64,000 bases of DNA. Origin: Streptosporangium saharense. Lineage in GTDB: Bacteria; Actinomycetota; Actinomycetes; Streptosporangiales; Streptosporangiaceae. Below are positions 15,974 to 31,941 of the stretch, in pieces. The notes below the pieces were generated by a model. That model did no database searches and was not told the DNA's origin. It saw only the letters and a list, made by a program, of their open reading frames with translations. The stretch is taken from contig NZ_JACHJP010000009.1 in the NCBI RefSeq assembly GCF_014203715.1, positions 62,001 to 126,000 of the forward strand, in the 5' to 3' direction. The translations under genes were made by a program, and so were the position numbers. Positions within the stretch are counted from its first letter, which is position 1. Each line of letters begins with the position of its first letter.

Positions 15974-16417
15974 ATGCGCGCACGTGACCTGCTGACCGCA
16001 TTTCCCACGGTCACCCTGGAGACCCCGGTCGCCGAGGCGGCCCGGCTGCTGGCCGACCAGGGACTTCCCGGCCTGATCGTGGTGGACGGCGACGGCCTGC
16101 CCATCAGCATCCTGCCCGGCACCCAGGTGCTCCGCCTGGCCGTGCCCGGCTACTGCCAGGACGATCCGGCGCTGGCGCGGGTGATCGACGAGGCGCACGC
16201 CGACGTCTTCCTGCGGGCGGTCGCCGGGCGGACGGTGCGTGAGGCGATGCCCCGCGAACGCAGGGAGCTGCCGGTCACCGACCCGGACGCCACGGTGCTG
16301 GAGGTCGCCGCCCTCATGGCGCGCACCCACAGCCCGCTGGCCGCGGTCGTCGAGGACGGCCGCCTGGTCGGCGCCGTCACGCTGCGGACGCTGCTCGACC
16401 GGGTGCTGGCCGCGTGA
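15974..16417 (+). CDS. Tandem CBS-domain protein
   Basis: This 147-aa protein is made of two CBS motifs (about residues 7-65 and 80-145), joined by a linker rich in Asp, Glu and Ala. A CBS pair typically binds adenosine nucleotides or S-adenosylmethionine and regulates a partner. Its stop overlaps the start of a transporter gene (GTGA), so it probably senses nucleotide state to regulate that transporter. ATG 15974 is preceded by GAGGA. Confidence 0.88.
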   Translation: MRARDLLTAFPTVTLETPVAEAARLLADQGLPGLIVVDGDGLPISILPGTQVLRLAVPGYCQDDPALARVIDEAHADVFLRAVAGRTVREAMPRERRELPVTDPDATVLEVAALMARTHSPLAAVVEDGRLVGAVTLRTLLDRVLAA

Positions 16418-17706
16418 GCGCCCTCGCCTGGCTGTCGGTCGCGGTCTTCCTCGGCGCCTACGCGCTGATCGCCACGGAACGCGTCCACCGGGTCGCCGCG
16501 GCCCTCGGCGGCGCCGGGATCATGCTGCTGATCCACGCGACCGACGCCGAGGCCGCGTTCTTCTCCCCGCACACCGGCGTCGACTGGAACGTCGTCTTCC
16601 TGCTGCTGGGCATGATGGTCATCGTCGGCGTGCTCAAACAGACCGGCGTCTTCGAGTATCTGGCGATCTGGGCCGCGAAACGGGCGAGGGGCAGGCCGTA
16701 CCGGCTGATGGTGCTGCTGGTCGTCATCACCGCCGTCGCCTCCGCGCTGCTGGACAACGTCACCACCGTGCTGCTCATCGCCCCGGTGACGTTCCTGGTG
16801 TGCGAACGGCTGGCCGTGCCGGTCGCGCCGTTCCTGATCGCCGAGGCCATGGCCTCCAACATCGGCGGCACCGCGACCCTGGTCGGGGACCCGCCCAACA
16901 TCATCATCGCCAGCCGGGGCGGCCTGACCTTCAACGACTTCCTCGTCCACCTGGCGCCGCTGATCGTGCTGCTGATGGTGATCTTCGTGGTGATGTGCCG
17001 CTTCCTGTTCCGTAAGGCGTTCACGCACGACCCCGCGCGGGCGGCCGACGTGATGGCGCTCGACGAGCGTGAGGCGATCACCGACAGGAAACTGCTGTGG
17101 CAGAGCCTGATCGTGCTGGCCCTGGTCCTGGTGGCCTTCGTGCTCCACCCCGTCCTGCACTACGAGCCGTCGGTCGTGGCGATCCTGGGGGCGGGTTTCC
17201 TGGTCGCCGCGACGAGGGTGACCGCGGAGGAGGCCATCTCCGAGGTGGAGTGGCCGACCCTGACGTTCTTCGCCGGGCTGTTCGTCATGGTCGGCGCGCT
17301 GGTCGAGACCGGCGTCATCGAGCAGATCTCCCGCGCCGCCGTCGAGGCCACCCAGGGAAGGACCGCCGTGGCCGCGACGGGCCTGCTGTGGGGGTCGGCC
17401 GCGATCTCGGCGATCGTCGACAACATCCCCTACGTGGCGACGATGAGCCCCATCGTGGCCGACCTGGTGAACGCGGCAGGGGGCGGCGAGCAGGCCAGGG
17501 TGCTGTGGTGGGCGCTCGCGCTCGGCGCCGACCTGGGCGGCAACGCCACCGCCGTCGGCGCCGCCGCCAACGTCGTCGTCATCGGCATCGCCGCCCGCAA
17601 CGGCACCCCGATCAGCTTCTGGGGCTTCACGAAGTACGGCCTCGTCGTCACCCTCGTCACCGTCGCCGTGGCCACGCCGTACCTGTGGCTGAGGTATCTG
17701 GTCTAA
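16414..17706 (+). CDS. ArsB/NhaD-type ion transporter (SLC13/ArsB superfamily)
   Basis: This 430-aa protein has about 10-12 hydrophobic helices and two repeated halves. Hallmarks of the ArsB/P-protein/NhaD group are ALLDNVTTVLLIAPV, MASNIGGTATLVGDPPN in the first half, and AIVDNIPYVATMSPI with DLGGNATAVGAAANVV in the second. The group includes arsenite pumps and Na+/H+ antiporters; the ion cannot be decided from sequence, and no ars genes are nearby. It is translationally coupled to the CBS protein. Its last 4 bp overlap the convergent siderophore permease gene. Confidence 0.9.
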   Translation: MSALAWLSVAVFLGAYALIATERVHRVAAALGGAGIMLLIHATDAEAAFFSPHTGVDWNVVFLLLGMMVIVGVLKQTGVFEYLAIWAAKRARGRPYRLMVLLVVITAVASALLDNVTTVLLIAPVTFLVCERLAVPVAPFLIAEAMASNIGGTATLVGDPPNIIIASRGGLTFNDFLVHLAPLIVLLMVIFVVMCRFLFRKAFTHDPARAADVMALDEREAITDRKLLWQSLIVLALVLVAFVLHPVLHYEPSVVAILGAGFLVAATRVTAEEAISEVEWPTLTFFAGLFVMVGALVETGVIEQISRAAVEATQGRTAVAATGLLWGSAAISAIVDNIPYVATMSPIVADLVNAAGGGEQARVLWWALALGADLGGNATAVGAAANVVVIGIAARNGTPISFWGFTKYGLVVTLVTVAVATPYLWLRYLV

Positions 17707-18719
17707 CCGCGCCGCCCCGTGCGCCTGACCAGCAGCCACAGGAGGTACGGCGCGCCGACGACGCCGGTGACGACGCCCGCGGGCAGCGGCACGCCGGGCA
17801 CCGCGAACTGCGCGACCAGGTCGGAGGCGAGCAGCAGCGCGGCCCCGGTCAGCGCGGACGGCAGCAGGGCGACGGAGCCCGTCCCGACGACGCGGCGCGC
17901 CACCGGGGCGCTGACCAGCGCGACGAACGGCACCGGCCCCACGACGGCGACGGCCGCGGCGGCCAGGGCGGCGGCGAGTCCGAGCAGCAGCATCCGGACG
18001 CGTTCGACCCGCTCACCGAGCGCAGTGGCCGGGTCGTCGCCCAGTTCGAGGACGGGCAGCCGACGCCCGGCGGCCAGCGCGGCGGGCACCAGTACGGCCC
18101 CGCAGACCGCGAGCGTCAGCGAGGTGTCCCAGCCCGCCCTGCCCAGGCTGCCGTTGATCCACACCAGCGCCTCCTGGGCGTCGCGCACGTCGCTGCTGGT
18201 GAGGACGTACGACACGAGGCCCATGCACAGGGCGGACACGCCGATGCCGACGATGACGAGGCGGTAGCCCGCGCGACGCCAGGACAGCAGGTGGACGGCC
18301 GCGGTCGCGACCAGGGCGCCGCCGAGCACGACGGCGGTCAGCGACAGGCCGCTCAGCCCGAAGCCGATGAGCCCGAGGATCCCGGCCGCGCCCGCGCTCT
18401 GCGTGACGCCGATGACGTCCGGGCTGGCCAGGGGGTTGCGCAGGATCGACTGGAGCAGCGCGCCCGACATGCCGAGACACGCCCCGGCGAGCAGCGCGGT
18501 GAGCATGCGCGGCATGCGCAGCTCCATGATGACGAACCCGGCCATCGCGTCCGCGCGGCCGAGGAGGGCGTCGAGGACCTCCTGCGGGCTGACCGACGCC
18601 TTGCCGAGCGTGAGCCCGCACACGGCGAGCGCGGCGATCACGACCGCGAGCACGAGGGTGACCCCGGCCTCGCGCAGCCGTGCCCGCCTGCGCAGACGGC
18701 CGGTCAGGGAGGCGGTCAT
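17703..18719 (-). CDS. Iron-siderophore ABC permease (FecCD family), second subunit
   Basis: This 338-aa polytopic permease of the FecCD/BtuC family has GACLGMSGALLQSILRNPLA and SPDVIGVTQSAGAAG near residues 75-115, the region that faces the binding protein. ATG 18719 overlaps the stop of the first permease (18716). It is the last gene of the uptake operon. No FecE-type ATPase follows, and it runs into the convergent transporter gene. Confidence 0.92.
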   Translation of the reverse strand: MTASLTGRLRRRARLREAGVTLVLAVVIAALAVCGLTLGKASVSPQEVLDALLGRADAMAGFVIMELRMPRMLTALLAGACLGMSGALLQSILRNPLASPDVIGVTQSAGAAGILGLIGFGLSGLSLTAVVLGGALVATAAVHLLSWRRAGYRLVIVGIGVSALCMGLVSYVLTSSDVRDAQEALVWINGSLGRAGWDTSLTLAVCGAVLVPAALAAGRRLPVLELGDDPATALGERVERVRMLLLGLAAALAAAAVAVVGPVPFVALVSAPVARRVVGTGSVALLPSALTGAALLLASDLVAQFAVPGVPLPAGVVTGVVGAPYLLWLLVRRTGRRG

Positions 18720-19768
18720 CGGCTTCCCTTCCCGCGCGGCCGTACCAGGGCGATGAGCAGGGGGGCGCCGACCGCCGCGACGACCACGCCGACCTGGAGC
18801 TCGCCGGGACGGGCGACGATCCTGCCGAGCACGTCGCAGCCGATGAGCAGGATCGGGCCGCAGAGCGCCGCATAAGGGACGATCCAGCGGTGGTCGGGAC
18901 CCGCGAGCCAGCGTGAGGCGTGCGCGACGATCAGCCCGGCGAAGGCGATCGGCCCGGCCGCCGCGGTGGCAGAGCCGCACAGCAGCACCACGGCCAGCGC
19001 GGCCAGCGCCCGGGTGAGGCCGACCCGCTGGCCGAGCCCCCTGGCCACGTCCTCGCCCAGGGCCAGGCCGTTGAGCGGCCTGCTGACCGCGACGGCGAGG
19101 ACGAACCCGGCGACGATCCCGGGCAGCGTCTGCCACAGCACCGGGAACCCCCGGGCGGCCAGCGCGCCGACCTGCCAGAAGCGCATCTGGTCGAGGGCCG
19201 AACGGTCGGTGAGCAGCACCGCGGTGACCAGCGAGGTGAGCGCCGCGCTGACCGCGGCCCCGGCGAGCACCAGCGTGACCGGGCTGGCGCCGCCGCGCCC
19301 CGCCGCCCCGGCCACGCCGTACACGAAGGCCGTCACCACGGCGGCCCCGGCGAAGGCGTACCAGAGCCTGCCGCCGTCCTGGACGCCGAACACGCTGATG
19401 GCGACGACGACGAAGAGGGAGGCGCCGGAGTTCACCCCGAGCAGGCCGGGATCGGCCATCGGGTTGCGGGTCAGCCCCTGCACGACCACCCCGGCCACGG
19501 CCAGGCCGAGCCCGGCCGTCACCCCGACGAGGGTCCTGGGCAGCCGCTTCTCGACGATCACCAGGTGGTGCGGGTTCGCCGGGTCGTAGTGGGTGAGCGC
19601 CTGCCACACCGTGCGCAGCGGCAGCGCGTTGGCGCCGACGGCGAGGCTGAACGCGCACACCGCGACCAGCGCCACGGCGAGCAGGAGCAGACCGGCGGCC
19701 AGGGGGCCGATCCGGCGCCGCAGGGGGGTGGCCTCCCGGGCGTCCCGGGAGGTGGACAGGAGGGGCAC
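18716..19768 (-). CDS. Iron-siderophore ABC permease (FecCD family), first subunit
   Basis: This 350-aa FecCD permease has RLPRTLVGVTAGLGLAVAG, NPMADPGLLGVNSGAS and a C-terminal AAAGPIAFAGLIVAH block. It is a paralogue of the next gene and would form a heterodimeric channel with it. It lies 4 bp downstream of the binding-protein gene and overlaps the second permease, consistent with one operon. Confidence 0.92.
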   Translation of the reverse strand: MPLLSTSRDAREATPLRRRIGPLAAGLLLLAVALVAVCAFSLAVGANALPLRTVWQALTHYDPANPHHLVIVEKRLPRTLVGVTAGLGLAVAGVVVQGLTRNPMADPGLLGVNSGASLFVVVAISVFGVQDGGRLWYAFAGAAVVTAFVYGVAGAAGRGGASPVTLVLAGAAVSAALTSLVTAVLLTDRSALDQMRFWQVGALAARGFPVLWQTLPGIVAGFVLAVAVSRPLNGLALGEDVARGLGQRVGLTRALAALAVVLLCGSATAAAGPIAFAGLIVAHASRWLAGPDHRWIVPYAALCGPILLIGCDVLGRIVARPGELQVGVVVAAVGAPLLIALVRPRGKGSR

Positions 19769-19772
19769 GAGG

Positions 19773-20855
19773 CTACGCGCCGGTCTTCCCGACGGCGGCG
19801 GCGAGCTGCGGGACGTACCGGTCGAGCATCCACGGGATGGACAGCACGGTCGGCGCGCTGCTGGCCATCACGAACGACTCACCCACGATGGGCGCGAAGC
19901 GCTTCTCCCTGATGTTGGGCATGGCCGCGATGACCGGGTCGGCGACGAACTTGTCGGCCTCCTTCTGGGAGCCGAAGTACATCACCAGCACGTCGGCGTC
20001 GATCTTGCCGACGTTCTCGTAGCTGATGCCGTAGAAGTAGGAGCCCGAGGTGGGGTCACCGTCGAGCGCGGCGACGCTGGGGCTCACGGTCATGCCGAGA
20101 TCGACGAGCAGTGCCACCCTGGGGTCGCTCGCCCGGTAGATGTTGAGCTGGTCGGCCTCGTTGGCGGCGCCGTACAGGAAGGACTTGCCCTTCAGGACTG
20201 GGTTGGCCTGGGCGAGGGAGGCGACGTAGGCGGCGGTCTTCTCCCGCAGCGCGGTGGCCTCGGCGCTGCGGCCGAGGGCCTTGCCGATGATCTCGATCTG
20301 GTCCTGCCAGGGCAGCGCCCACGGCTTCTCGGGGTAGGCGACGACCGGGGCGACCTTGCTGAGCTTGGCGAAGTCGTCCTTGGTGATGCCCGAGTAGGGG
20401 GCGAGGATGACGTCGGGACGGGCCTCGACGATCTCCTCGAACGGCACCTCACCGCTGTCGGAGCTGAGCAGGGCCGGGGTGGTGCCGCCCAGTTCCTTGA
20501 TCTTCTCCGCGTCCCAGGGGAGCACGCCGTCGGCGTCGCCGCCGTAGGTGTTCTTCGGCATCGCGACCGGGACCACGCCGAGGGCGAGCACGGCGTCCTG
20601 GCTCGACCAGCCCCAGGTGACCACGCGCTCGGGCTTCTTGGGGATCACGGCGTCGCCGAGGGCACTGGGGATGGTGACGGGGAAGGCGTCACCGGCGGGC
20701 GCGGCCTGGCTCCGCGAGGCGGACGCCTCGGGCGCGGCGGGGCCGGAGGGGGTGGTGGAGGCGGAACACCCGGCGAGCGCGACAGCGGTCAGCGTGACCA
20801 GCGCGGACAGCATGGTCAGCGCGTTCCTGGATCGCGACCGTACGGCGGTGAGCAT
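19773..20855 (-). CDS. Iron-siderophore binding lipoprotein
   Basis: This 360-aa class III (FhuD/FepB-like) periplasmic-type binding protein has a lipobox (ALAGC) after a hydrophobic signal and an Ala/Ser/Pro-rich tether. Typical features are KPERVVTWGWSSQDAVLALG, VEARPDVILAPYSGIT and the Trp-rich LPWQDQIEIIGKALG. I chose ATG 20855, with GGAG 6 nt upstream, over a TTG four codons earlier. A DtxR/IdeR-like box lies just upstream, so it should be derepressed in iron starvation. The siderophore cannot be named. Confidence 0.92.
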   Translation of the reverse strand: MLTAVRSRSRNALTMLSALVTLTAVALAGCSASTTPSGPAAPEASASRSQAAPAGDAFPVTIPSALGDAVIPKKPERVVTWGWSSQDAVLALGVVPVAMPKNTYGGDADGVLPWDAEKIKELGGTTPALLSSDSGEVPFEEIVEARPDVILAPYSGITKDDFAKLSKVAPVVAYPEKPWALPWQDQIEIIGKALGRSAEATALREKTAAYVASLAQANPVLKGKSFLYGAANEADQLNIYRASDPRVALLVDLGMTVSPSVAALDGDPTSGSYFYGISYENVGKIDADVLVMYFGSQKEADKFVADPVIAAMPNIREKRFAPIVGESFVMASSAPTVLSIPWMLDRYVPQLAAAVGKTGA

Positions 20856-20882
20856 GCGATTCTCCAAGTGACGGAAGAGAAT

Positions 20883-20901
20883 TTAGGCAAGGCTTACCTT
20901 A
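20883..20901. promoter_or_regulatory. DtxR/IdeR-like iron box
   Basis: TTAGGCAAGGCTTACCTTA matches the actinobacterial iron-box consensus (TTAGGTTAGSCTAACCTAA) at 15 of 19 positions by eye. It sits 27 bp before the start of the siderophore-binding lipoprotein gene. Fe(II)-bound regulator would repress the uptake operon here. Confidence 0.8.
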
Positions 20902-20954: not shown

Positions 20955-22748
20955 TCATCCCGCCGTGGCGCGGGTGTCCGACCAGGCCTCCCACAGGGCG
21001 GCGTAGCGCCCGCCGAGGGCCAGCAGCTCCTCGTGCGTGCCGCTCTCCATGACCTGGCCGTCCTCCATGACGACGATCCGGTCCGCCGTCGCGGCCTGCG
21101 TCAGCCGGTGCGCGACCACCAGTGCGGTACGGCCCCGCGCGGCACGGGCCGCGGCCCTTTCGAGCGCCCGGGCACCCGCGCTGCCCGCCTCGGCCGTCGC
21201 CTCGTCGAGCACCGCGACCTCGGGGTCGGCGAGCACCAGCCTGGCCAGCGCGAGCTGCTGCACCTGCGCGGCGGTGAGCCGGTGTCCCGCCTCGCCGACG
21301 ACCGTGTCCAGCCCCTCGGGCAGCGCGTCCGCCCACTCCAGCGCGCCGACCAGGTCGAGCGCCGAACGCAGCTCCTCCTCGTCGGCCCCCGGCCTGGCCA
21401 GCCGCAGGTCCTCGGCCAGCGGTCCGGCGAACACGTGCGACTCCTGCGTGACCAGCACCACCGCCCGCGCCGCGCCGGGCCGGGCGGCGGGCAGCCGTAC
21501 GGTCCCGGCGGAGGGGCGCTGGACGCCCGCGACGATCCTGGCCAGCGTCGACTTGCCCGCGCCGCTCGCGCCGACCAGCGCGACCTGCTCGCCGGGGCGC
21601 AGGACGAGATCGACGCCGCGCAGCACGGGCCGTCCCGCCTCGTAGGCGTGCCCGGCGCCCGCCACGGTCACCTCCCGGCCCTGCCCCGACGCCGCCTCCT
21701 GCCCGGCCTCGGGCCCGGGCTCCGGCTCGGGGGGCAGCGTGGCGACCCCGGCCAGGCGCGCCAGCCCGGCCAGGGCCGACTGCGCGTCGTCGAGTAGCAC
21801 GAGCGCGTTGTTGATCGGGCCGAACAGGCTGTGGAAGTACAGCGCGGCGGCGGTCGCGGTGCCGATGGAGGCCGTGCCGTCCCGCACCAGGAGGAACCCG
21901 GCGAACAGCACCGCGGCCAGCCCGATGTACTCGGCGATGTGCAGGCGGCTGTAGAAGCCGACCACGAGCCTGACCCCGCGCATCGTCAGCTCGATCGCCG
22001 CCCGCGAGGCCTTCGCCACCCGTCCGGTGTGCTCGTCCTCCATCCGGAAGGCCCGTACGGTCTCCGCGCCGCCGATCGTGTCGAGCAGCCGCTGCTGGAT
22101 CCCCGCCGCCGCGACCCGCTGGCGGGCGTACAACGGCACCGCGTTGCGCACGTACCAGCGGGCGGTGTGCGCCTGGACCGGCACCGCGAGCAGCGCGGCG
22201 ACCAGGAAACGCCAGTCGAGCAGCGCCAGGGCGCCGAGCGTCAGCACGATGGCCAGCAGGGACCGGGCGAGCTCGGGCATGGCGTTGCGCACCGACTCGG
22301 CGACCCGGGACACGTCACCGGTGACCCTGGCCGTCAGGTCGCCGGAGCCCGCCCGCTCGACCCGCTCCTGCGGCAGCAGCAGCGCCCGCTCCACGAACCG
22401 CTCCCGCAGCGCGGCCAGCATGGTCTCGCCGAGCCGAGAGATCAGCGTCAGCCCCAGCGCGGTCGCGCCTCCCTGCAGGACCGCGACGAGCACCAGCAGC
22501 ACGGCGGGGGTGGTCAGCTCGGAGGCGGGACGGCCCTCGGCGACCAGGTCCACGATGTGCCCGAGGAGCGGTTGGGGGAGCAGCCCGAACGCGGTCGCGC
22601 CGACCATCACGGCGAACGCGGCCAGGGCCAGTCCACGGCGCGGTCGCAGCAGCTCCCACACGAGGGCCCGGGTCCGCGCGGGCGAAGCCGTCGGCAGCGC
22701 CTCTTCGGACAACGCCATCTCCCTGAAAGGTGTCTCCTGGTGTGTCAC
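20955..22748 (-). CDS. ABC exporter-fold half-transporter with degenerate signature motif
   Basis: This 597-aa protein has six membrane helices followed by an ATPase domain, as in type IV (exporter-fold) systems; IrtB-like siderophore transporters share this layout. Walker A is intact (GASGAGKST, about residue 396), as is Walker B with its catalytic Glu (VAVLDEATAEAGS). The signature that should read LSGGQ is LTAAQ (about 493). The GTG start overlaps the partner stop (GTGA). An in-frame ATG at 22718 is an alternative. The iron context suggests siderophore movement, but direction cannot be read from sequence. Confidence 0.88.
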   Translation of the reverse strand: MTHQETPFREMALSEEALPTASPARTRALVWELLRPRRGLALAAFAVMVGATAFGLLPQPLLGHIVDLVAEGRPASELTTPAVLLVLVAVLQGGATALGLTLISRLGETMLAALRERFVERALLLPQERVERAGSGDLTARVTGDVSRVAESVRNAMPELARSLLAIVLTLGALALLDWRFLVAALLAVPVQAHTARWYVRNAVPLYARQRVAAAGIQQRLLDTIGGAETVRAFRMEDEHTGRVAKASRAAIELTMRGVRLVVGFYSRLHIAEYIGLAAVLFAGFLLVRDGTASIGTATAAALYFHSLFGPINNALVLLDDAQSALAGLARLAGVATLPPEPEPGPEAGQEAASGQGREVTVAGAGHAYEAGRPVLRGVDLVLRPGEQVALVGASGAGKSTLARIVAGVQRPSAGTVRLPAARPGAARAVVLVTQESHVFAGPLAEDLRLARPGADEEELRSALDLVGALEWADALPEGLDTVVGEAGHRLTAAQVQQLALARLVLADPEVAVLDEATAEAGSAGARALERAAARAARGRTALVVAHRLTQAATADRIVVMEDGQVMESGTHEELLALGGRYAALWEAWSDTRATAG

Positions 22749-24439
22749 GTCAGGACCGCCGCGCGGTAGACCGCGTTGCCGCGGGCCAGGTCCGCGTGCG
22801 GCCCGGTCTCCACGATCCGGCCGCCGTCCAGCAGCACCACCCGGTCGGCGACCGTGAGCAGCGCCGGGCTGGTGGTGACCATGATCGTGGTACGGCCCCT
22901 GCGCAGTTCCCGGATCCCGACGGCGATCCTGGCCTCGGTGACCGTGTCCACCGCGGTCGTCGGGTCGTGGACCACCAGCACGGGCCGGTCGGCGGCCAGC
23001 GCCCTGGCCAGGGCGACCCGCTGGCGCTGCCCGCCGGACAGTGACCGGCCGCGCTCGGCGACCGCGGTCTCCTCCCCGTACGGCAGGGCACCGGCGACCT
23101 CGTCGGCCCCCGCGGCCTCCATGGCCGGGCGCAGGTCGGCGTCCTGTTCGGTGGCGGCGCCGACGTTGCCGCGCAGCGTGCCCTCGAACAGGTCGGCGTC
23201 GTGCGCGGCGACCAGGACTGCCGAGCGCAGGTCACCGGGGTCGAGGTCGCGCAGGCAGACCCCGTCGAGTTCGACGCTCCCGGCGTCGGGGTCGGCGCGC
23301 CGGTCCAGGCAGCGCAGCAGCGCGAGCGCGTCGGCGGGGTCGGTCGCGGCGACGCCGAGCAGTTCGCCCGGCGCGACCTCCAGGTCGATCCCGCGCAGCC
23401 CGGCGTGCTCGACCCCGCGAAGGCGGAGCCCGCCCAGGGGCTCCGGCGTCAGCCGTACGGCACCGGGGGCGACGGTGTGCGGCGCGGCCAGCACCTCGGC
23501 GATCCTGGTGGCCGACGCCCTGGCCTGGGCGAAGGAGGTGTTGACGCGGGCCAGCGCCTGCAACGGCCCGATCAGGAACAGCGCGAGGCCGACCGCGGAG
23601 ATCAGGTCGCCCAGGCTGACCTGCCCGTCGGCGGCCAGCCGTCCGCCGAACAGGCCGACGACCGCGATGAGGAAGCCGGTCAGCGCCAGGACCACGCCGT
23701 TCTGCAGCGCCTCGGCCCTGGCGGCGCGCATCGTCGCGGCCAGGGAGTCACGGCTGGTCGTGCGGTACCTGTCCACGGCGGCCCGTTCGGCGCCGATGCC
23801 CTTGAGCACCCGCAGCCCGGCGACCAGGTCGGCGGCGACGCCGGAGGCGCGTGCGGCCCGCTCCTGCTCGGTCGCGCTGCGCCGTTCGAGCGGCCTGCTC
23901 AGCAGATGGCCGAGCCACAGCAGCGCCGGGGCACCGGCCAGCACGACCAGGCCGAGCGGGACCGAGATCCACAGCAGTACGGCGGCCCCGGACAGCAGCC
24001 CGGTGAACGTGGCGACGGCGCCGGGGATCGCGATGGCCAGCATGCCGACCCGTCTGGCGTCCTCGGTGGCGATCCCGGCGAGGGCACCGGGGAGCCGCCC
24101 GGTCTCGGCGCCCCCGCCGGGATGCAGAACCCGGTCGACGACCTCGGCGCGCAGGGCGTGCGCCGCCTCCTCGGCGGCGCGATCCGAGGCGCGGGCGCCG
24201 AACCGGTAGCTGAAGGACAGTACGAGATAGACGACGGCCAGGACCGCGAGCCAGCGCAGCAGCACGCCGAGATCACCCGCGGCGACGCCCTGGTCGACGG
24301 CCAGGCCGATCAGCACGGGCACCGTGGCCTCCCCGACCTGGTGCCCGGCGCGCAGCAGGGACCCGGCCAGGACCAGCCGCCGCTGCCCACCGAGCGCACG
24401 GCGCAGGACCACCTGTCCTGGCGACCTCGACCGCCTCAC
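22745..24439 (-). CDS. ABC exporter-fold half-transporter with degenerate Walker A and B
   Basis: This 564-aa partner of the downstream gene has six membrane helices, then an ATPase domain. The P-loop is lost: where GxxGxGKST is expected (about residue 363) the sequence is GVAATDPADAL. Walker B reads VLVVHDPTTAVD, so the metal Asp is His and the catalytic Glu is Asp. The signature LSGGQRQRV (about 468) is perfect. It can therefore contribute a signature to its partner's ATP site but probably cannot bind ATP normally itself. GTG 24439 has GGAGGG upstream. An iron-box-like site lies 35 bp further upstream. Confidence 0.88.
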   Translation of the reverse strand: MRRSRSPGQVVLRRALGGQRRLVLAGSLLRAGHQVGEATVPVLIGLAVDQGVAAGDLGVLLRWLAVLAVVYLVLSFSYRFGARASDRAAEEAAHALRAEVVDRVLHPGGGAETGRLPGALAGIATEDARRVGMLAIAIPGAVATFTGLLSGAAVLLWISVPLGLVVLAGAPALLWLGHLLSRPLERRSATEQERAARASGVAADLVAGLRVLKGIGAERAAVDRYRTTSRDSLAATMRAARAEALQNGVVLALTGFLIAVVGLFGGRLAADGQVSLGDLISAVGLALFLIGPLQALARVNTSFAQARASATRIAEVLAAPHTVAPGAVRLTPEPLGGLRLRGVEHAGLRGIDLEVAPGELLGVAATDPADALALLRCLDRRADPDAGSVELDGVCLRDLDPGDLRSAVLVAAHDADLFEGTLRGNVGAATEQDADLRPAMEAAGADEVAGALPYGEETAVAERGRSLSGGQRQRVALARALAADRPVLVVHDPTTAVDTVTEARIAVGIRELRRGRTTIMVTTSPALLTVADRVVLLDGGRIVETGPHADLARGNAVYRAAVLT

Positions 24440-24473: not shown

Positions 24474-24492
24474 TTAGGGAAGGCTACCTATC
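24474..24492. promoter_or_regulatory. Weak iron-box-like site upstream of the ABC pair
   Basis: TTAGGGAAGGCTACCTATC contains TAGG and CCTA half-sites, but they are 8 rather than 9 nt apart. It is a poorer match than the 20883 box. Position, just upstream of the ABC pair and overlapping the aminotransferase stop by 2 bp, supports a regulatory role. Confidence 0.5.
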
Positions 24493-25735
24493 AGTCAGGC
24501 AATGTCCGGTTTGAGTCAGCCATGTCGGTCAGGCTGTCATTCAGCGCCTTCACCATCCGGTCGAGGGCGGACTCCCACTGCGCCTCGTCCCTGGCGTAGC
24601 ACACCCGGAACCGCCCGACCCCCGACGGGCCGAACTGGTAGCCGGGGCTCACCACGACCCCCGCCTCCCGCTGCAGGAGACCGGCGACCGCGACGTCGCT
24701 GAGGCCGAGCGCCGAGACGTCGGGCCACAGGTAGGCCGTCCCGTTGCCGGGCCGTACGACCAGGCCGTCCACCTGACGCAGCCGGTCGACGGTCAGGTCG
24801 CGGATGGCACGCAGCTCCTCGACGCGGCGCCGTACGAACTCCTGGTCGTCGACCAGCCAGCGGGTGAGCAGGTGCTGGGCGTAGGCGGGGGCGCGCAGGC
24901 AGGTCATCGCCATCACCTGCTCGATCGCGTCCACGATCTCCGCGGGAGCGACCACGACCCCGATCCGGAAGCCGCTGAGCGACTCCGTCTTGGACCCGCC
25001 CAGCATCGTCACCGTCCGCTCCGCCATGCCCGGCTGGGCCGCGAGATGGAAGAACGGGACGCCCGGGTAGACCAGCCTGCAGTACAGCTCGTCCACGACC
25101 ACCAGGAAGTCATGCCGTACGGCCAGGCCCGCCAGACCACGGACCGTCGCCTCGGTGTAGACAGAACCGGTCGGGTTGTTGGGGTTGGACGTCAGCAGCA
25201 GCTTGACGCCGTCCCTGGCCACCTCCTCCAGCGCGTCCAGGTCGAGCTGCGGCCCGTCGGGGCCGTCGATCATGCCGACCCGCACCACGTTGGCGCCGAG
25301 GAAGCGCAGCATCCGTTCGACGAACAGATACTCGGGGTCGGCGAGCGCGACCGTGTCGCCGTCGTCGACCAGCGCGCTGAGCGTGGTGAACAGGCCGTTC
25401 TGGGTTCCCGCGGTCAGCACGAGGTTGCGGCCGGGATCGACCTCCACGCCGAGCAGCTCGGAGACCGGACCCGCGCAGGCCCGCCGTACCGCGTCGTCGC
25501 CCCGGTAGGCGGTGTAGGCCAGCTCGCCGTCCCCGGCCGCCCGGGTGAACGTCTCCAGCGCCCAGTCCGGGGGAGGGAAGCGCACGGTGTCGAAGTGGGT
25601 GGTGTCGAGCAGCCCGTGCCCGGCGCCGTCGAGCCGCAGGCTGAGGTCGGCCTCGCGCACGGACGTGCCGATGTAGCGTGCCCGTTCGGGCAGGTGGGTC
25701 GCGCGCAGCCGCCGTGATTCCCGCTGTGGTCGCAT
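24491..25735 (-). CDS. Class I/II (aspartate aminotransferase fold) PLP aminotransferase
   Basis: This 414-aa fold type I PLP enzyme has SNPNNPTG at about 185, the cofactor Asp/Tyr in VVVDELYCRLVYPG, the Schiff-base Lys in GGSKTESLSGFRIG (about 248) and the substrate-carboxylate Arg in GRFRVCYAR. ATG 25735 has GGAG 9 nt upstream. It lies 84 bp downstream of the Opp ATPase gene on the same strand, so it probably processes an imported amino acid or short peptide product. The amino-acid specificity is not evident. Confidence 0.88.
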   Translation of the reverse strand: MRPQRESRRLRATHLPERARYIGTSVREADLSLRLDGAGHGLLDTTHFDTVRFPPPDWALETFTRAAGDGELAYTAYRGDDAVRRACAGPVSELLGVEVDPGRNLVLTAGTQNGLFTTLSALVDDGDTVALADPEYLFVERMLRFLGANVVRVGMIDGPDGPQLDLDALEEVARDGVKLLLTSNPNNPTGSVYTEATVRGLAGLAVRHDFLVVVDELYCRLVYPGVPFFHLAAQPGMAERTVTMLGGSKTESLSGFRIGVVVAPAEIVDAIEQVMAMTCLRAPAYAQHLLTRWLVDDQEFVRRRVEELRAIRDLTVDRLRQVDGLVVRPGNGTAYLWPDVSALGLSDVAVAGLLQREAGVVVSPGYQFGPSGVGRFRVCYARDEAQWESALDRMVKALNDSLTDMADSNRTLPD

Positions 25736-25819: not shown

Positions 25820-27867
<2,048 letters not shown>

Positions 27868-27871
<4 letters not shown>

Positions 27872-28791
27872 GCGCGCCTGCCTGACTGGGTGGTGTCGAG
27901 GGCGTCCCGCAGCCCGTCGCCGATGAAGTTGACGCTCAGCGCGATCAGCACGATGAACAGCCCTGGGAAGTAGAACAGCCAGGGCCTGGTGGTGATGGCC
28001 GTCTGGTTCTGGCTGACCAGCAGTCCGAGCGAGGTGTCCGGCGGCTGCACGCCGAAGCCGATGAACGACAGCGCCGTCTCGGCCAGGATGGCGACCGCCA
28101 CGTTCACGGTGACCGTGACGATGATCGTGCCCATCGCGTTGGGCAGGATGTGCCGGAAGATGATGTGCGGGATGCTCGCGCCGAAGCTGCGCGCCGCCGC
28201 GACGTACTCGCGCTCCCGCAGCGACAGCACCAGGCCCCGCACGAGCCGCGCCACGTACGGCCAGGTCAGCGCGGCCAGCACCAGGCCGACCAGCGCCCAG
28301 CTCTGCTCGCCGTGCGCGACGTTGCCCGCGAGCACGGCGGCCACGGCGATGGCCGGGAAGATCAGCACGAGGTCCACGATCCGCATCATCACCGTGTCGA
28401 TCCGCCCGCCGTACAGACCGGCGACCGCGCCCCACACGCTGCCGAAGGCGCCGGAGACACCCGCGACGAGCAACGCGATCTCGATCGAACGCTGGGTGCC
28501 CCGAAGCACCTGGGCGAACAGGTCGTAGCCCGTCGCGTCGGTGCCGAAGGGATGCTCAAGTGACGGCGGCACCGAGTTGTCCGGGGTGAAGACGTCGTAG
28601 CTGTAGTGCCACAGCGACCCGCCGACGAAGGCGAGCAGCACCAGGCAGGTGAAGACCACCAGGCTGACCGTGGCGAGCCGGTGCCGCAGGAAACGGCGGA
28701 CCATGAGCCGGTACGGCGCGCCCGGCGCCTCCTGCTTGACCTCCCCGGGAGCCCCGGTGGGGACCGGAGCCAGGATGTCCATCTCAGGCAA
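27868..28791 (-). CDS. ABC importer permease, DppC type
   Basis: This 307-aa permease has a cytoplasmic N-tail, then LEHPFGTDATGYDLFAQVLRG, the EAA loop EYVAAARSFGASIPHIIFRH and five to six helices. It overlaps the upstream permease gene by 8 bp and the downstream ATPase gene by 4 bp, typical of a single transcript. Confidence 0.93.
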
Positions 28792-29761
28792 GGCGAATCC
28801 TCGGGTCGAGCACCGCGTAGAGCAGGTCCGCGATGAGGTTGAACAGGATGACGATCAGCGAGACGACCAGCAGCCAGCCCATCACCGCGTAGACGTCGCG
28901 TTCGCGGACCGCGGTGAGCAGGAAGGAGCCCATCCCGCGCCACTGGAAGACGGTCTCGGTGACGACGGCGCCGGAGAACAGCACCGCCAGGTCCAGCCCG
29001 ACCACCGTGGTCAGCGGGATCAGCGCGGTGCGCAGCGCGTGCCGTACCAGAACGGTGCGGCGGCCGAGCCCCTTGGCGCGGGCGAGCCGCACGTAGTCGC
29101 TCTGCAGCACCTCGATGATCGAGGAACGGACGTAGCGGCTCCACGGCGCGAACGCGGTCATGGCCAGCACGATCGTCGGCAGCACCAGGTGGCCGAGCAC
29201 GTCCCTGACCGTGTCCGCGAACCCGGTCGGGGCGGGGATGGAGCTGTCGCCGACCGTGTAGAACAGGCTGACGCCGACGGCGTCGTTGACGTCGATCGCC
29301 TGCTGCTTGAGCAGGATCGCCAGCCAGAAGGCCGGCATGGACAGCATCAGGAAACCGAGGAAGGTGAAGCCGTAGTCGATGACGGAGTAGCGCCTGACCG
29401 CGCTGACCAGGCCGACCACCAGGGCCAGGAGCACCGCGACGATCATCGCGAACGCCACCAGGCGGACGCTGACCAGCACCCGCTGCCCGATCTCGTGGCC
29501 GATGTCGATCCGGCTGACCGACGGCCCCCAGTCACCGCGCACGATGCCGGAGAGCCAGTGCCAGTAGCGCAGGTGCAGCGGCTCGTCCAGGCGCAGCCGG
29601 TGGGTCTCCGCCGCCAGGACGGCCGGGGAGACCGGGGGCTGCTTGGCCTTGAGATCGCCGAGCGGGTCGCCCGCGGCGCTCACCATCAGGAACGTGGCGA
29701 ACGATCCGACGATCACCACGGGGACGGTGTGCAGGAGCCGCCTCACGATGTAGGCGAACAA
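28784..29761 (-). CDS. ABC importer permease, DppB type, TTG start
   Basis: This 325-aa permease has the DppB layout, including RLDEPLHLRYWHWLSGIVRG, GDWGPSV and the EAA loop DYVRLARAKGLGRRTVLVRH. I chose TTG 29761 because GAGGAG lies 8 nt upstream and the protein then begins FAYIVRRLLHTVPV, the normal family start. A GTG-type start at 29800 would add 13 unlikely residues. Confidence 0.92.
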   Translation of the reverse strand: MFAYIVRRLLHTVPVVIVGSFATFLMVSAAGDPLGDLKAKQPPVSPAVLAAETHRLRLDEPLHLRYWHWLSGIVRGDWGPSVSRIDIGHEIGQRVLVSVRLVAFAMIVAVLLALVVGLVSAVRRYSVIDYGFTFLGFLMLSMPAFWLAILLKQQAIDVNDAVGVSLFYTVGDSSIPAPTGFADTVRDVLGHLVLPTIVLAMTAFAPWSRYVRSSIIEVLQSDYVRLARAKGLGRRTVLVRHALRTALIPLTTVVGLDLAVLFSGAVVTETVFQWRGMGSFLLTAVRERDVYAVMGWLLVVSLIVILFNLIADLLYAVLDPRIRLA

Positions 29762-29818
29762 TGGACACGCTCCTCGCGTAGGCCGGTGGGTGACCCGCAC
29801 CGGCGATCTCGACAGGGA

Positions 29819-31558
29819 CTAGCGGATGCCCCACTCGCCGCCGTTGTACGGCGGGCCGAAGTAGGTGCCGTTCGCCCGGACGTTGACCAGGTTCGACTTG
29901 TAGGCGAGCAGGTCGGGCTGCTGGTACATCGGCAGGATGTAGCCGTCCTCGCTGAGCTGCCTGTCGACCCCGTTGAGGAGTTCGGCGGACTCGGCGGGGT
30001 CGGTGGCGCTCAGCGCCTTCTTCAGCAGGTCGTCAACCTTGGCGCTGCTGTAGCCGCCGAAGTTGAGCCCGGCCTTCGTCATGAACGCCTGGGAGTACTG
30101 CGAGGCCAGGAACGTCTGGCCGACCCACGTCATCGCGAAGATGTCGAAGTCCTTGCCCGGCTGGTGGGTGACGGTCTCCCCGACCGAGTCGGTGCTCTGG
30201 ACGTTGACCGTGACGCCGATGGCCTTGGCGGAGGCCGCGAACAGCTCGCTGATCGTCTGCAGGATCTGGTCGTTGGCCAGGTAGCGCATCGTGATCGGCG
30301 GAACCGGCGTCCCCTTGGGATCGATGAGCCTGCCCGCGTCGATCTTGTACCCGGCGCCGGTCAGCAGCGCGGTCGCCTTGGCCACGTCACCGGAGCCCTG
30401 GTCGCCCAGGTTGTCCTGGTAGGCGGGGGTCTGCTGGGGCACGTAGATCCGGTTGCGCAGCGGAACCGCCTCGGGGTCGAACTGGCCGACCGTCTTGGAG
30501 ATGGCCTGCTTGACGTCCATCGCGGTGAACAGCGCCTTGCGCAGCACCGGGTCCTGCATGACCGGGTTGTTGAGGTTCGGCAGCAGCATCTGCTTACGCA
30601 GGCCACGGACGAGCTGGTAGTTCACCCCCTTCAGGGCCTGCACGTTCCTGAGCAGGTCGACCTGCGGCTGCGGGTTGATGATCTGCACCTCGTTGTTCCG
30701 CAGCGCCGGGACCTCCTGCGTGGTGTCAGTGATCACCCGGAAGATCAGGCTGTCGAGGGTGACCGGCTTGCCGTACCACTTGGGATTGGGGACCAGCGTC
30801 GCGGCCTGGTTGCTCTGCCAGGACTTGAACATGAACGGCCCGCCGGACCAGTCGGGGAAGGAGGTCTTGTAGCGGAAGCCCTCGTTGAAGGAGGCGGCGA
30901 GCCCGTCGGGGGTGCCGTCGTCACCGAGCTTCTTGGCCACGTGCGCGGGCAGCAGCGGACTGAACATCGACTGCCAGTCGCCGAACGGCTTGCTCAGCGT
31001 CACGGTGACCGTCTTGCCGCCGTCGGAGGCGACAAGCGACTTGACGCTGTCGTACCCCATGGTCGAGGCGACCTCGCACTTCGGGCAGACCCGCGGGTCC
31101 GAGGCCCGCCAGACGTACTCGAAGTCGGCCGCCGAGATCGGCGTGCCGTCGGACCAGACCGCCTTGGGGGAGATCTTGTAGACGAGCACCTGGGGGGACG
31201 TGCTGGTCTGCTCCGCGCTGAGGAGGAGGTCCTTGTTCATCTCGACGGTCTTCAGGTCGGGCGCCGAGAAGAAGGTCGAGGGGTCGTAGACATCGGCGAC
31301 GAGCTGGGTCGCCACGCCGATGTCGGCGCCGAGCGGGTTCCAGTTGAGGATGTTGCGTTCCAGGACGTAGGTGATCGAGCCACCCTTGCCCGCGGTTCCC
31401 GAGTTGACGGTGTTGGCGTCCCCCTTGACGAGGGTCGCGCCCGAGCCCCCTGCCTCTGCCTGGTTCTCTCCGTTGCCCGCTCCCGCGGAACAGGCGCTCA
31501 CGAGGAGGGCCGCGAGGGCGGCGGCCACCAAAGGACCGTAACGATTTCGACGGTTCAT
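29819..31558 (-). CDS. ABC importer substrate-binding lipoprotein, SBP family 5
   Basis: This 579-aa family 5 solute-binding protein has a lipobox (LVSAC) after a short hydrophobic signal and then a Gly/Glu/Asn-rich tether. It shares family blocks such as GSITYVLERNILNWNPLG and VWSDGTPISAADFEYVW. Cys residues in DPRVCPKCEV may form a disulfide. ATG 31558 has GGGAG about 8 nt upstream. It is first in the five-gene minus-strand operon and diverges from the deacylase operon. Ligand unknown, probably a peptide or an acylated amino acid. Confidence 0.92.
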   Translation of the reverse strand: MNRRNRYGPLVAAALAALLVSACSAGAGNGENQAEAGGSGATLVKGDANTVNSGTAGKGGSITYVLERNILNWNPLGADIGVATQLVADVYDPSTFFSAPDLKTVEMNKDLLLSAEQTSTSPQVLVYKISPKAVWSDGTPISAADFEYVWRASDPRVCPKCEVASTMGYDSVKSLVASDGGKTVTVTLSKPFGDWQSMFSPLLPAHVAKKLGDDGTPDGLAASFNEGFRYKTSFPDWSGGPFMFKSWQSNQAATLVPNPKWYGKPVTLDSLIFRVITDTTQEVPALRNNEVQIINPQPQVDLLRNVQALKGVNYQLVRGLRKQMLLPNLNNPVMQDPVLRKALFTAMDVKQAISKTVGQFDPEAVPLRNRIYVPQQTPAYQDNLGDQGSGDVAKATALLTGAGYKIDAGRLIDPKGTPVPPITMRYLANDQILQTISELFAASAKAIGVTVNVQSTDSVGETVTHQPGKDFDIFAMTWVGQTFLASQYSQAFMTKAGLNFGGYSSAKVDDLLKKALSATDPAESAELLNGVDRQLSEDGYILPMYQQPDLLAYKSNLVNVRANGTYFGPPYNGGEWGIR

Positions 31559-31941
31559 TTCTCTGCTCCCACAGGTCCGCCGCGGCGAGGAGACGCGCGA
31601 GTCGCGGTTCCCGGCGTGATCTGCCGCGGAACCGCTGCCTGCCCCGCCGCGGTCAACCAAGTGAACGGGAACCCCCGGGAAACGGGCAAGCGCGGGAATC
31701 TGCACCGTCTCTTTTAGCTCTGCTAATGGGCTGTGACATTTCCGTGACCGGTCCCGCTCTTTTAGCGGACGTTAACTGATCGCTTTCGAAAACGTTTCTT
31801 GTGTGCTCTCAGGGCCTTTTGGCAGACTCGGCGGCCAGCGACGGGACGTCTTCCCGTGGCCGATCTGTCCGCCCCCCGACACGCCGGTACGCGTCTCCCG
31901 AAGGGGGCGGGGTGTGTCGTCCACAGTGAGGAGAACCGCCC
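31559..31941. promoter_or_regulatory. Divergent control region between the Opp and deacylase operons
   Basis: No gene fits in these 383 bases. CTCTTTTAGC occurs at 31709-31718 and again at 31757-31766 (48 bp apart); the second copy lies in a small inverted repeat CCGCTcttttAGCGG. AAACGTTT near 31790 is a perfect 8-bp palindrome in A/T-rich DNA, of the kind bound by LacI-type regulators. The LysR gene at 34915 is a candidate regulator of this region. Confidence 0.5.

What the first reader, a model, noticed from the sequence alone, without database searches (positions are those of the whole stretch)
20955..24439. Heterodimeric ABC pair with complementary loss of ATP-site motifs
One chain (22745-24439) has lost Walker A (GVAATDPADAL) and altered Walker B (VHDP) but keeps a perfect LSGGQ. 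The other (20955-22748) keeps Walker A and B with Glu but its signature is LTAAQ. In an ABC dimer each site uses Walker A/B of one chain and the signature of the other, so exactly one complete site can form and the second is fully dead. Asymmetric pairs are known, but the degenerate site usually keeps a usable P-loop. This looks like an extreme case of a one-site machine in an iron context.
Basis: partly seen in the sequence, partly recalled or inferred. Interest (0 to 1): 0.7.

Follow-up and report, generated by a model that had tools for sequence, protein, structure and literature searches.

The report
Iron-linked ABC pump with one ATP-site
Two neighbouring soil-bacterium genes encode a two-part membrane pump, most likely for iron-scavenging molecules, in which one of the two usual ATP engines has been erased on both of its faces while the other is intact, and many related pumps in the actinobacteria share this one-engine design.

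Summary
Both genes lie on the minus strand, overlap by 4 nt and encode full ABC half-exporters. Chain A (22745-24439) has lost A-loop, Walker A, Q-loop Gln, Walker B Asp/Glu and H-loop His but keeps LSGGQ and its D-loop. One composite site is complete; the other is altered throughout.

It is no quirk of this window. Of 147 full chains lacking the Walker A Lys (window included), 147 keep SGGQ and the D-loop Asp, none has the Q-loop Gln or H-loop His; 107 of 107 K-bearing partners lack SGG. Trees without motif columns, or on membrane domains alone, give one clade per chain: a single paired loss, with no reversal seen. The window's subclade is siderophore-associated (76 of 99 loci against 1 of 35), with an iron box upstream of chain A in 98 of 134 (controls 1 of 74). 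By gene order it includes CchG/CchI, presumed coelichelin exporter.

Best reading: a one-ATP siderophore exporter with a pseudo-NBD; a new variant of degenerate-site exporters (Pdr5 nearest). I found no biochemistry.

The parts
22745..24439 (-). Chain A, 564 aa half-exporter with degenerate NBD (pseudo-NBD): no A-loop aromatic, Walker A replaced by GVAATDPADA, Q-loop His413, Walker B His491-Asp492, H-loop Thr523; keeps LSGGQ (467) and D-loop TAVD (Asp498)
   Evidence: AlphaFold2 model pLDDT 90.4
20955..22748 (-). Chain B, 597 aa half-exporter: intact Walker A (GASGAGKST), Q-loop Gln435, Walker B Asp515-Glu516, H-loop His547; signature LTAAQ (491) and D-loop AEAGS (Gly522) lost
   Evidence: AlphaFold2 model pLDDT 86.8
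22745..22748 (-). 4-nt overlap of chain A stop and chain B start (GTGA), suggesting translational coupling
24474..24492 (-). Weak iron-box-like sequence 34 nt upstream of the chain A start (13 of 19 to the consensus); roughly where many relatives have 15-18 of 19
20883..20901 (.). Iron-box-like palindrome (DmdR1/IdeR type), 16 of 19, between chain B and the binding-protein gene; the only site of 14 or more in the window; no site of 15 or more in 12 Markov-shuffled windows
19773..20867 (-). Siderophore-type binding lipoprotein (Peripla_BP_2)
18716..19768 (-). FecCD-family iron-siderophore permease
17703..18752 (-). Second iron-siderophore permease (matches NCBIfam FhuB and iron-enterobactin permease models, below cut-offs)
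24491..25735 (-). PLP-dependent aminotransferase just upstream; its end overlaps the weak iron box, so it is probably not in the same transcription unit (inference)

Best explanation
The two genes encode an obligate heterodimeric ABC exporter, most likely of a siderophore, that runs on a single ATP site. Shown by sequence: the catalytic half of the live site (A-loop, Walker A, Q-, Walker B, H-loop) comes from chain B, its signature and D-loop from chain A, and these are kept across the family; the motifs of the opposite site have diverged on both chains; on the trees this arose once before the sampled family radiated, with no reversal of Walker A or signature; the window's subclade is tied to siderophore genes and iron boxes. 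Inferred: chain A's NBD is a pseudo-ATPase that donates the signature and moves with its coupling helices; the dead interface acts as a nucleotide-free hinge that keeps the NBDs together while one ATP is bound and hydrolysed at the live site per cycle, much as an ADP-bound intermediate of MsRv1273c/72c is held together at an empty degenerate site; the cargo is a siderophore moved outwards in iron-starved cells.
For: Motif table, 118 A and 115 B rows; 147/147 non-Lys chains keep SGGQ+D, 0/147 keep Q-loop Gln or H-loop His, 109/109 full K-bearing chains of the same loci have K-Q-D-E-H. Motif-free and TMD-only trees: non-Lys A chains one clade (0.993, 0.985), dead-signature B chains one clade (0.998, 0.988), both splitting in the same two groups; Fitch changes on the TMD tree: Walker A 1, signature 1, D-loop 1. 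AlphaFold2: in A the strand ends at 365 and the helix starts at 368, against strand end 392 and helix 399 in B (A371 aligns with K399), so the phosphate loop is replaced by an earlier helix start. Siderophore genes beside 63/80 + 13/19 loci of the window's group, 0/12 of the sister group, 0/9 classical, 1/14 other exporters of the genome. Iron box upstream of A in 63/80 named + 35/54 other grade-1 chains, upstream of grade-1 B 0/128, sister-group A and B 0/24, other exporter chains 1/50. Coelichelin-type clusters L177 and L178: importer genes, then B, an NRPS of about 3,630-3,650 aa, then A; CchGI 'is presumed to export coelichelin' (PMC12161575, passages). Empty degenerate site in an ADP-bound state of MsRv1273c/72c (PMC12038006, one section read).
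Against: I found no biochemical datum for any member. Pdr5's comparably eroded site binds ATP in cryo-EM. Export direction is by association only: exporter-fold IrtAB imports siderophores, and YbtPQ is named a yersiniabactin-iron transporter (import recalled). No NRPS was seen among the window genes examined near the pair, and the window's box upstream of A scores only 13/19. 17 of 80 named loci have none of the siderophore genes searched, and 17 of 80 no box upstream of A. Three of 34 control loci also hold a box of 15/19 somewhere. The H-loop shows 3 Fitch changes, Walker B Asp 4 and Q-loop 8. A single origin means the co-loss is one event, not many.
Confidence: 0.65

Rival explanations
1. 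Same one-site catalysis, but the degenerate site still binds ATP permanently as a structural glue, as the deviant site of Pdr5 does.
For: Pdr5 NBS1 has Lys->Cys, Glu->Asn, His->Tyr and LNVEQ yet shows bound ATP (PMC7756269 and PMC8421411, passages and sections). It has been suggested that ATP acts as a glue in degenerate sites (PMC12038006, passage). 16 of 118 A rows keep Phe or Tyr in the shortened A-loop.
Against: In the window the A-loop aromatic residue, the P-loop glycines, Walker B Asp and the partner D-loop are gone too, whereas in Pdr5 the D-loop is conserved. AlphaFold2 predicts no phosphate loop in A. P-loop positions 366, 370, 372 of A and signature positions 493-494 of B are among the least conserved of the NBDs (9th-17th percentile).
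Confidence: 0.2
2. The pair imports ferric siderophores, like IrtAB, perhaps working with the neighbouring binding protein.
For: In the window the pair is followed by a binding protein and two FecCD-type permeases, and iron boxes stand upstream of it in relatives. IrtAB has the same fold and ranks among the structural matches of both chains, YbtPQ among those of A.
Against: The coelichelin-type clusters L177 and L178 hold FecC, FecD, FecE and binding-protein genes beside the pair, so import is already provided for; NRPS genes lie in the flanks of 30 of 80 named loci. The genome has a separate IrtA-like pair with both sites canonical (L125). IrtAB binds nucleotide at both sites (PMC10246721, passages); no other Pfam domain is present here.
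Confidence: 0.13
3. The former Mg-ATP pocket of chain A has become a binding site for a transition metal or another ligand, giving the pump an iron-status gate.
For: Q-loop Gln and Walker B Asp, canonical Mg-side residues (Gln: PMC10246721 passage; Asp recalled), both became His: His413 in 49 of 51 and His491 in 48 of 51 non-redundant chains, with Asp492 in 45 of 51. The His-His pair is in 124 of 135 chains of the iron-linked group and 0 of 12 of the sister group, for which no iron link was seen.
Against: The two His are not strictly coupled: His with Val, Cys, Gln or Asp, and Tyr with His, occur; shared ancestry can explain the co-occurrence; no coordinates were available to measure the distance; packing or NBD-TMD coupling would also conserve them.
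Confidence: 0.06
4. Sequencing error or a decaying pseudogene in chain A.
For: Motif loss is the usual sign of decay.
Against: Same loss in 147 chains (146 fetched ones, 142 distinct, plus the window), LSGGQRQ and D-loop Asp invariant in 51 of 51 non-redundant grade-1 chains, open frame with GC3 0.94, one well-supported clade.
Confidence: 0.01

Closest known systems
CchG/CchI, presumed coelichelin exporter of Streptomyces coelicolor (SCO0491 and SCO0493)
   Same: Loci L177 and L178 carry monooxygenase, FecC, FecD, FecE, binding protein, B-type chain, large NRPS, A-type chain in that order; this fits CchCDEF = SCO0494-0497 and CchGI = SCO0491/0493. L179 is alike but gave no FecE or monooxygenase hit.
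   Different: In the window the two genes are adjacent and overlapping, with no NRPS seen nearby. The NRPS as SCO0492, and the reading that B stands for CchG and A for CchI, are recalled or inferred; the S. coelicolor sequences were not compared.
Pdr5 / fungal PDR transporters (deviant NBS1)
   Same: One canonical site and one site altered in Walker A, Walker B, H-loop and the opposite signature.
   Different: Pdr5 is one polypeptide with reverse domain order, keeps its D-loop and shows ATP at the deviant site. Here the partner D-loop is also lost, the A-loop is shortened and the P-loop is predicted to be absent.
Classical degenerate heterodimers (TM287/288, TmrAB, MsRv1273c/72c)
   Same: Type IV exporter fold, one degenerate site; best structural matches of chain A.
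   Different: The MsRv1273c/72c degenerate site binds ATP through its Walker A, and the nine classical pairs keep Walker A and H-loop, with Asp for Glu and a partner LSAGE/K.
IrtAB and YbtPQ siderophore transporters
   Same: Exporter-fold heterodimers in iron acquisition.
   Different: IrtAB binds nucleotide at two sites, carries a SID and imports; the pair here has one intact site and no extra Pfam domain.

Membership tests
Type IV (ABCB-like) ABC half-exporters | N-terminal six-helix TMD (PF00664) fused to an NBD (PF00005) in each chain | tested here: met
   Both chains above Pfam gathering scores; models match solved exporters (chain B's whole-chain TM only about 0.5)
Heterodimeric exporters with a degenerate NBS | One canonical composite site and one with non-catalytic residues | tested here: met
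   at sequence level
Heterodimeric exporters with a degenerate NBS | Degenerate site keeps a usable Walker A (common, not universal in the family) | tested here: not met
   Lys is Ala371 in the window; 147 such chains found; loop predicted absent
Heterodimeric exporters with a degenerate NBS | ATP bound at the degenerate site | not testable with these tools
   needs binding assay or structure
CchG/CchI-type siderophore exporters | Gene order of the coelichelin cluster with A- and B-type chains on either side of the NRPS | tested here: met
   for relatives L177 and L178, numbering from PMC12161575 passages; not met by the window's own locus, which has no NRPS beside the pair
CchG/CchI-type siderophore exporters | Sequence homology to SCO0491 and SCO0493 | not tested
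   S. coelicolor sequences were not fetched
CchG/CchI-type siderophore exporters | Exports a siderophore | not testable with these tools
   only presumed even for CchGI
IrtAB / YbtPQ transporters | Two ATP sites, both binding nucleotide (IrtAB) | tested here: not met
   one site erased in sequence; IrtAB from PMC10246721 passages
IrtAB / YbtPQ transporters | Siderophore-interaction domain on IrtA | tested here: not met
   Pfam shows only the TMD and NBD families
Pdr5-type PDR transporters | Single polypeptide with NBD-TMD-NBD-TMD order | tested here: not met
   two separate TMD-NBD chains
DmdR1/IdeR iron regulon | 19-bp iron box upstream of the operon | tested here: inconclusive
   window: 13/19 upstream of A, 16/19 upstream of the binding protein; relatives 98 of 134 at 15/19 or better upstream of A

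The most novel reading that the evidence does not exclude
The erased ATP site has been rebuilt into something new: in the iron-linked subclade the two Mg-side residues (Q-loop Gln, Walker B Asp) became a conserved His-His pair next to Asp492, which could bind a transition metal and gate the one remaining ATP engine by iron status. If so, a dead ABC site is an allosteric metal sensor inside a siderophore pump.
Probability: 0.06. Interest if true: 0.88.

Novelty: new variant of a known kind. Interest (0 to 1): 0.6.

Why it matters
Why ABC exporters tolerate or prefer a degenerate site is an open question; a review speaks of its unclear functional advantages (PMC7756269, abstract). This family is a natural experiment: a graded series from classical degenerate pairs, through pairs lacking Walker A and signature but keeping the partner D-loop, to pairs in which one site is altered throughout, all found within one phylum. 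It offers a bacterial system to ask whether one ATP site suffices for transport, what the dead interface does, and how siderophores leave actinobacteria.

Tried and rejected
Rejected: plus-strand reading. Rejected: pseudogene or sequencing error. Rejected: independent variation of Walker A, signature and D-loop; Walker B, Q-loop and H-loop do vary (4, 8 and 3 Fitch changes; the H-loop count includes classical chains). Rejected: membership in IrtAB/YbtPQ. None of the best 25 NCBIfam families listed for each chain (of 175 and 157 matched) reached its cut-off. The strict iron-box search with at most 3 mismatches found nothing in the window; the 16/19 site appeared only with the graded script. The promoter/terminator scan found nothing. 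A single-chain model cannot show the dimer interface, and no coordinates were returned, so the His413-His491 distance was not measured; chain B's model matches whole solved chains with TM only about 0.5.

Literature: eight of ten full-text searches used; in the papers listed I saw none that describes a bacterial exporter family without Walker A in one chain. This covers only the open-access library, and only listings, abstract openings and the passages or sections opened.

Limits of the counts: the 147 chains include the window's own; the other 146 are 142 distinct sequences, and 58 non-Lys chains remain at 75% identity or less. L001-L003 were dropped as copies of the window, L123 and L122; 40 of 339 aligned chains without a full NBD were not counted. 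Six A chains had no K-bearing partner in the fetched stretch: partners of L011, L148 and L150 were found beyond the NRPS in L179, L178 and L177; in L146 the partner is cut by the contig end; L010 and L012 were not followed. The neighbour count covers 134 loci and leaves out the short loci L001-L038; L177-L179 were fetched because their A chain stands beside an NRPS and so bias the 13 of 19 upward. Flanks were up to 5 kb in the named loci and mostly 2-4 kb in controls; score thresholds differ by query, and strand was ignored (script). The iron-box counts had one B fragment (L146) among the A chains and cut B chains and two foreign exporters among the controls; re-sorted them, and its numbers are used here.
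Full report
WHAT IS THERE. The two reading frames lie on the minus strand, chain A at 24439..22745 (564 aa) and chain B at 22748..20955 (597 aa), overlapping by 4 nt. Both are complete type IV half-exporters (PF00664 + PF00005); none of the best 25 NCBIfam families listed for each reached its cut-off. Aligning the two chains shows more: in chain A the Walker A Lys is Ala371, Q-loop Gln is His413, Walker B Asp/Glu are His491/Asp492 and the H-loop His is Thr523, while Ser-Gly-Gly-Gln and the D-loop Asp498 are kept; chain B has Lys399, Gln435, Asp515, Glu516 and His547 but Thr-Ala-Ala-Gln and Gly522 in the D-loop. The window's chain A has no aromatic residue in a shortened A-loop, though 16 of 118 rows have Phe or Tyr there. 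Each composite site takes Walker A/B, A-, Q- and H-loops from one NBD and the signature from the other (PMC7756269, passages). Every change therefore falls on one composite site and none on the other.

IS IT MORE THAN CHANCE. Relatives came from the genus (10 of 16 genomes at E<=1e-75), family (91 of 200 at the same limit), phylum (30 of 396 at E<=1e-60), the window's genome counted in each, and 80 named loci, the best 80 of a capped list. These counts rest on similarity to chain A, and the phylum count includes classical pairs. Among 339 aligned chains, 299 with a full NBD, 147 (window included) lack the Walker A Lys. Of these 147, all 147 keep S-G-G-Q and the D-loop Asp, none has the Q-loop Gln or H-loop His, 7 keep both Walker B residues. 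The K-bearing full chains in the same loci number 109, all K-Q-D-E-H; 107 of them lack S-G-G in the signature, and the other two (L168, L170) are separate neighbouring exporters. In the coelichelin-type clusters the two genes stand about 11 kb apart on either side of an NRPS gene, and the pattern still holds (L177-L179: B has LDVTK and AEAGS; the A chains L148, L150 and L011 have Tyr with His or Arg at the Q-loop and Walker B places).

ORIGIN AND ORDER. Three grades exist. Grade 0, classical (nine pairs): A has Walker A and H-loop but Asp for the catalytic Glu, partner LSAGE/K. Grade 2: A lacks Walker A, Q and H, with nothing aligned at the A-loop; partner signature lost but D-loop Asp kept; Walker B may still be LDEPT. 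Grade 1 (the window): as grade 2, with partner D-loop AEAG (AESG in L151) and usually Walker B HDPTT. Trees on 146 chains at 75% identity or less, built without the motif columns or on the membrane domains alone, put all 58 non-Lys A chains in one clade (0.993, 0.985), all 49 dead-signature B chains in one clade (0.998, 0.988), and split both into the same grades. Fitch counts on the TMD tree: Walker A 1, signature 1, D-loop 1, H-loop 3, Walker B Asp 4, Q-loop 8. So Walker A and signature were lost before the grades split and stayed lost in this sample; the partner D-loop differs between the grades; Walker B changed repeatedly or partly reverted (L143, L151 and the L159 group keep Asp-Glu). 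These are FastTree supports, the root was not inferred, and the co-loss is a single event.

RELAXED AND RE-CONSERVED PARTS. In 51 non-redundant grade-1 A chains LSGGQRQ and Asp498 are invariant. In the dead half His413 (49/51), His491 (48/51), Asp492 (45/51), Pro493 and Ser524-Pro525 (51/51) are strongly kept, while P-loop positions 366, 370 and 372 and, in B, signature positions 493-494 are among the least conserved of the NBD. So some phosphate-contacting parts are relaxed but the pocket has a new consensus. The His-His pair occurs in 124 of 135 grade-1 chains and 0 of 12 grade-2 chains.

STRUCTURE. AlphaFold2 models from 44-row alignments reach pLDDT 90.4 (A) and 86.8 (B). In B the strand 388-392 is followed by a six-residue loop and a helix from K399; in A the strand ends at 365 and the helix starts at 368, three alignment columns earlier, at local pLDDT about 95: the phosphate loop is predicted absent. 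Best solved matches of A are TM287/288 and TmrAB at 23-27% identity.

CONTEXT. The pair is followed by a binding protein and two FecCD-type permeases. In the flanks of 80 named grade-1 loci, 63 hold at least one of: binding protein 28, FecCD 36, FecE 25, NRPS 30, ornithine monooxygenase 10, formyltransferase 11; other grade-1 loci 13 of 19; grade 2 0 of 12; classical 0 of 9; other exporters of this genome 1 of 14 (Fisher on 76/99 against 1/35, p = 2e-15, with the biases told under Tried and rejected; the labels FecE, NRPS, monooxygenase and formyltransferase are my reading of the sequences shown). A DmdR1-type iron box (published sites in PMC7174319 Table 1, passage) of 15/19 or better lies within -250/+40 of the estimated chain A start in 63 of 80 named and 35 of 54 other grade-1 chains, upstream of grade-1 B chains in 0 of 128, in grade 2 in 0 of 24, in other exporter chains in 1 of 50, and that one is IrtA-like. 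Anywhere in the locus, a box stands in 72 of 80 grade-1 and 3 of 34 control loci, the latter being shorter. The window's own site upstream of A is weak (13/19); its 16/19 site is upstream of the binding protein. L177 and L178 fit the coelichelin gene order, with the A and B chains on either side of the NRPS; CchGI is 'presumed to export coelichelin' (PMC12161575, passages).

HOW IT LIKELY WORKS. Shown at sequence level: anatomy, conservation, iron link. Inferred: obligate heterodimer (neither chain can form a complete site with itself), one ATP per cycle at B-Walker/A-signature, dead face as a hinge. A precedent for a nucleotide-free hinge is the ADP-bound state of MsRv1273c/72c, where the NBDs stay dimerised only through an empty degenerate site (PMC12038006, one section read). 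The main caution is Pdr5, whose eroded site still binds ATP (PMC8421411, one section read). Export rather than import is favoured by the separate importer genes in the same clusters and by the NRPS neighbours, but is not shown.

VERDICT. A real, old and widespread variant of degenerate-site exporters, more thoroughly erased than the examples read here, linked to iron; ordinary in fold, unusual in mechanism. Of two plasmid relatives found, one is annotated 'ABC transporter ATP-binding protein' and the other has no feature listed.

Noticed in passing
L119, L122, L123, L130/L180 (same genome as the window): The genome has at least four further pairs of this type besides the window's; L122 and L123 are grade 1, L119 and L130 grade 2. 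The A-type chain of L130/L180 is in two separate reading frames.
   Followed up: partly
L125 (G000:C2:44000-49500): An IrtA-like pair with both sites canonical also has a 16/19 iron box upstream of one chain, a natural two-site comparison in the same genome.
   Followed up: partly
L159, L165, L167, L168, L170; L143, L151: Chains that lost Walker A but still carry the Walker B Asp-Glu (LDEP), in separate parts of the tree: recurrent Walker B change or partial reversion.
   Followed up: partly
window 17703-19768: Two FecCD-type permeases and a binding protein without a FecE-type ATPase gene directly beside them; the next gene (16414-17706) is a citrate/arsenite-type transporter on the other strand.
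   Followed up: no
window 24491-25735: PLP enzyme resembling, below cut-off, the guanitoxin cyclodehydratase family GntC; upstream of the pair.
   Followed up: no
window 25820-31705: Dipeptide/oligopeptide-type ABC importer (two ATPase domains in one frame, a permease, an SBP_bac_5 binding protein) on the same strand upstream.
   Followed up: no
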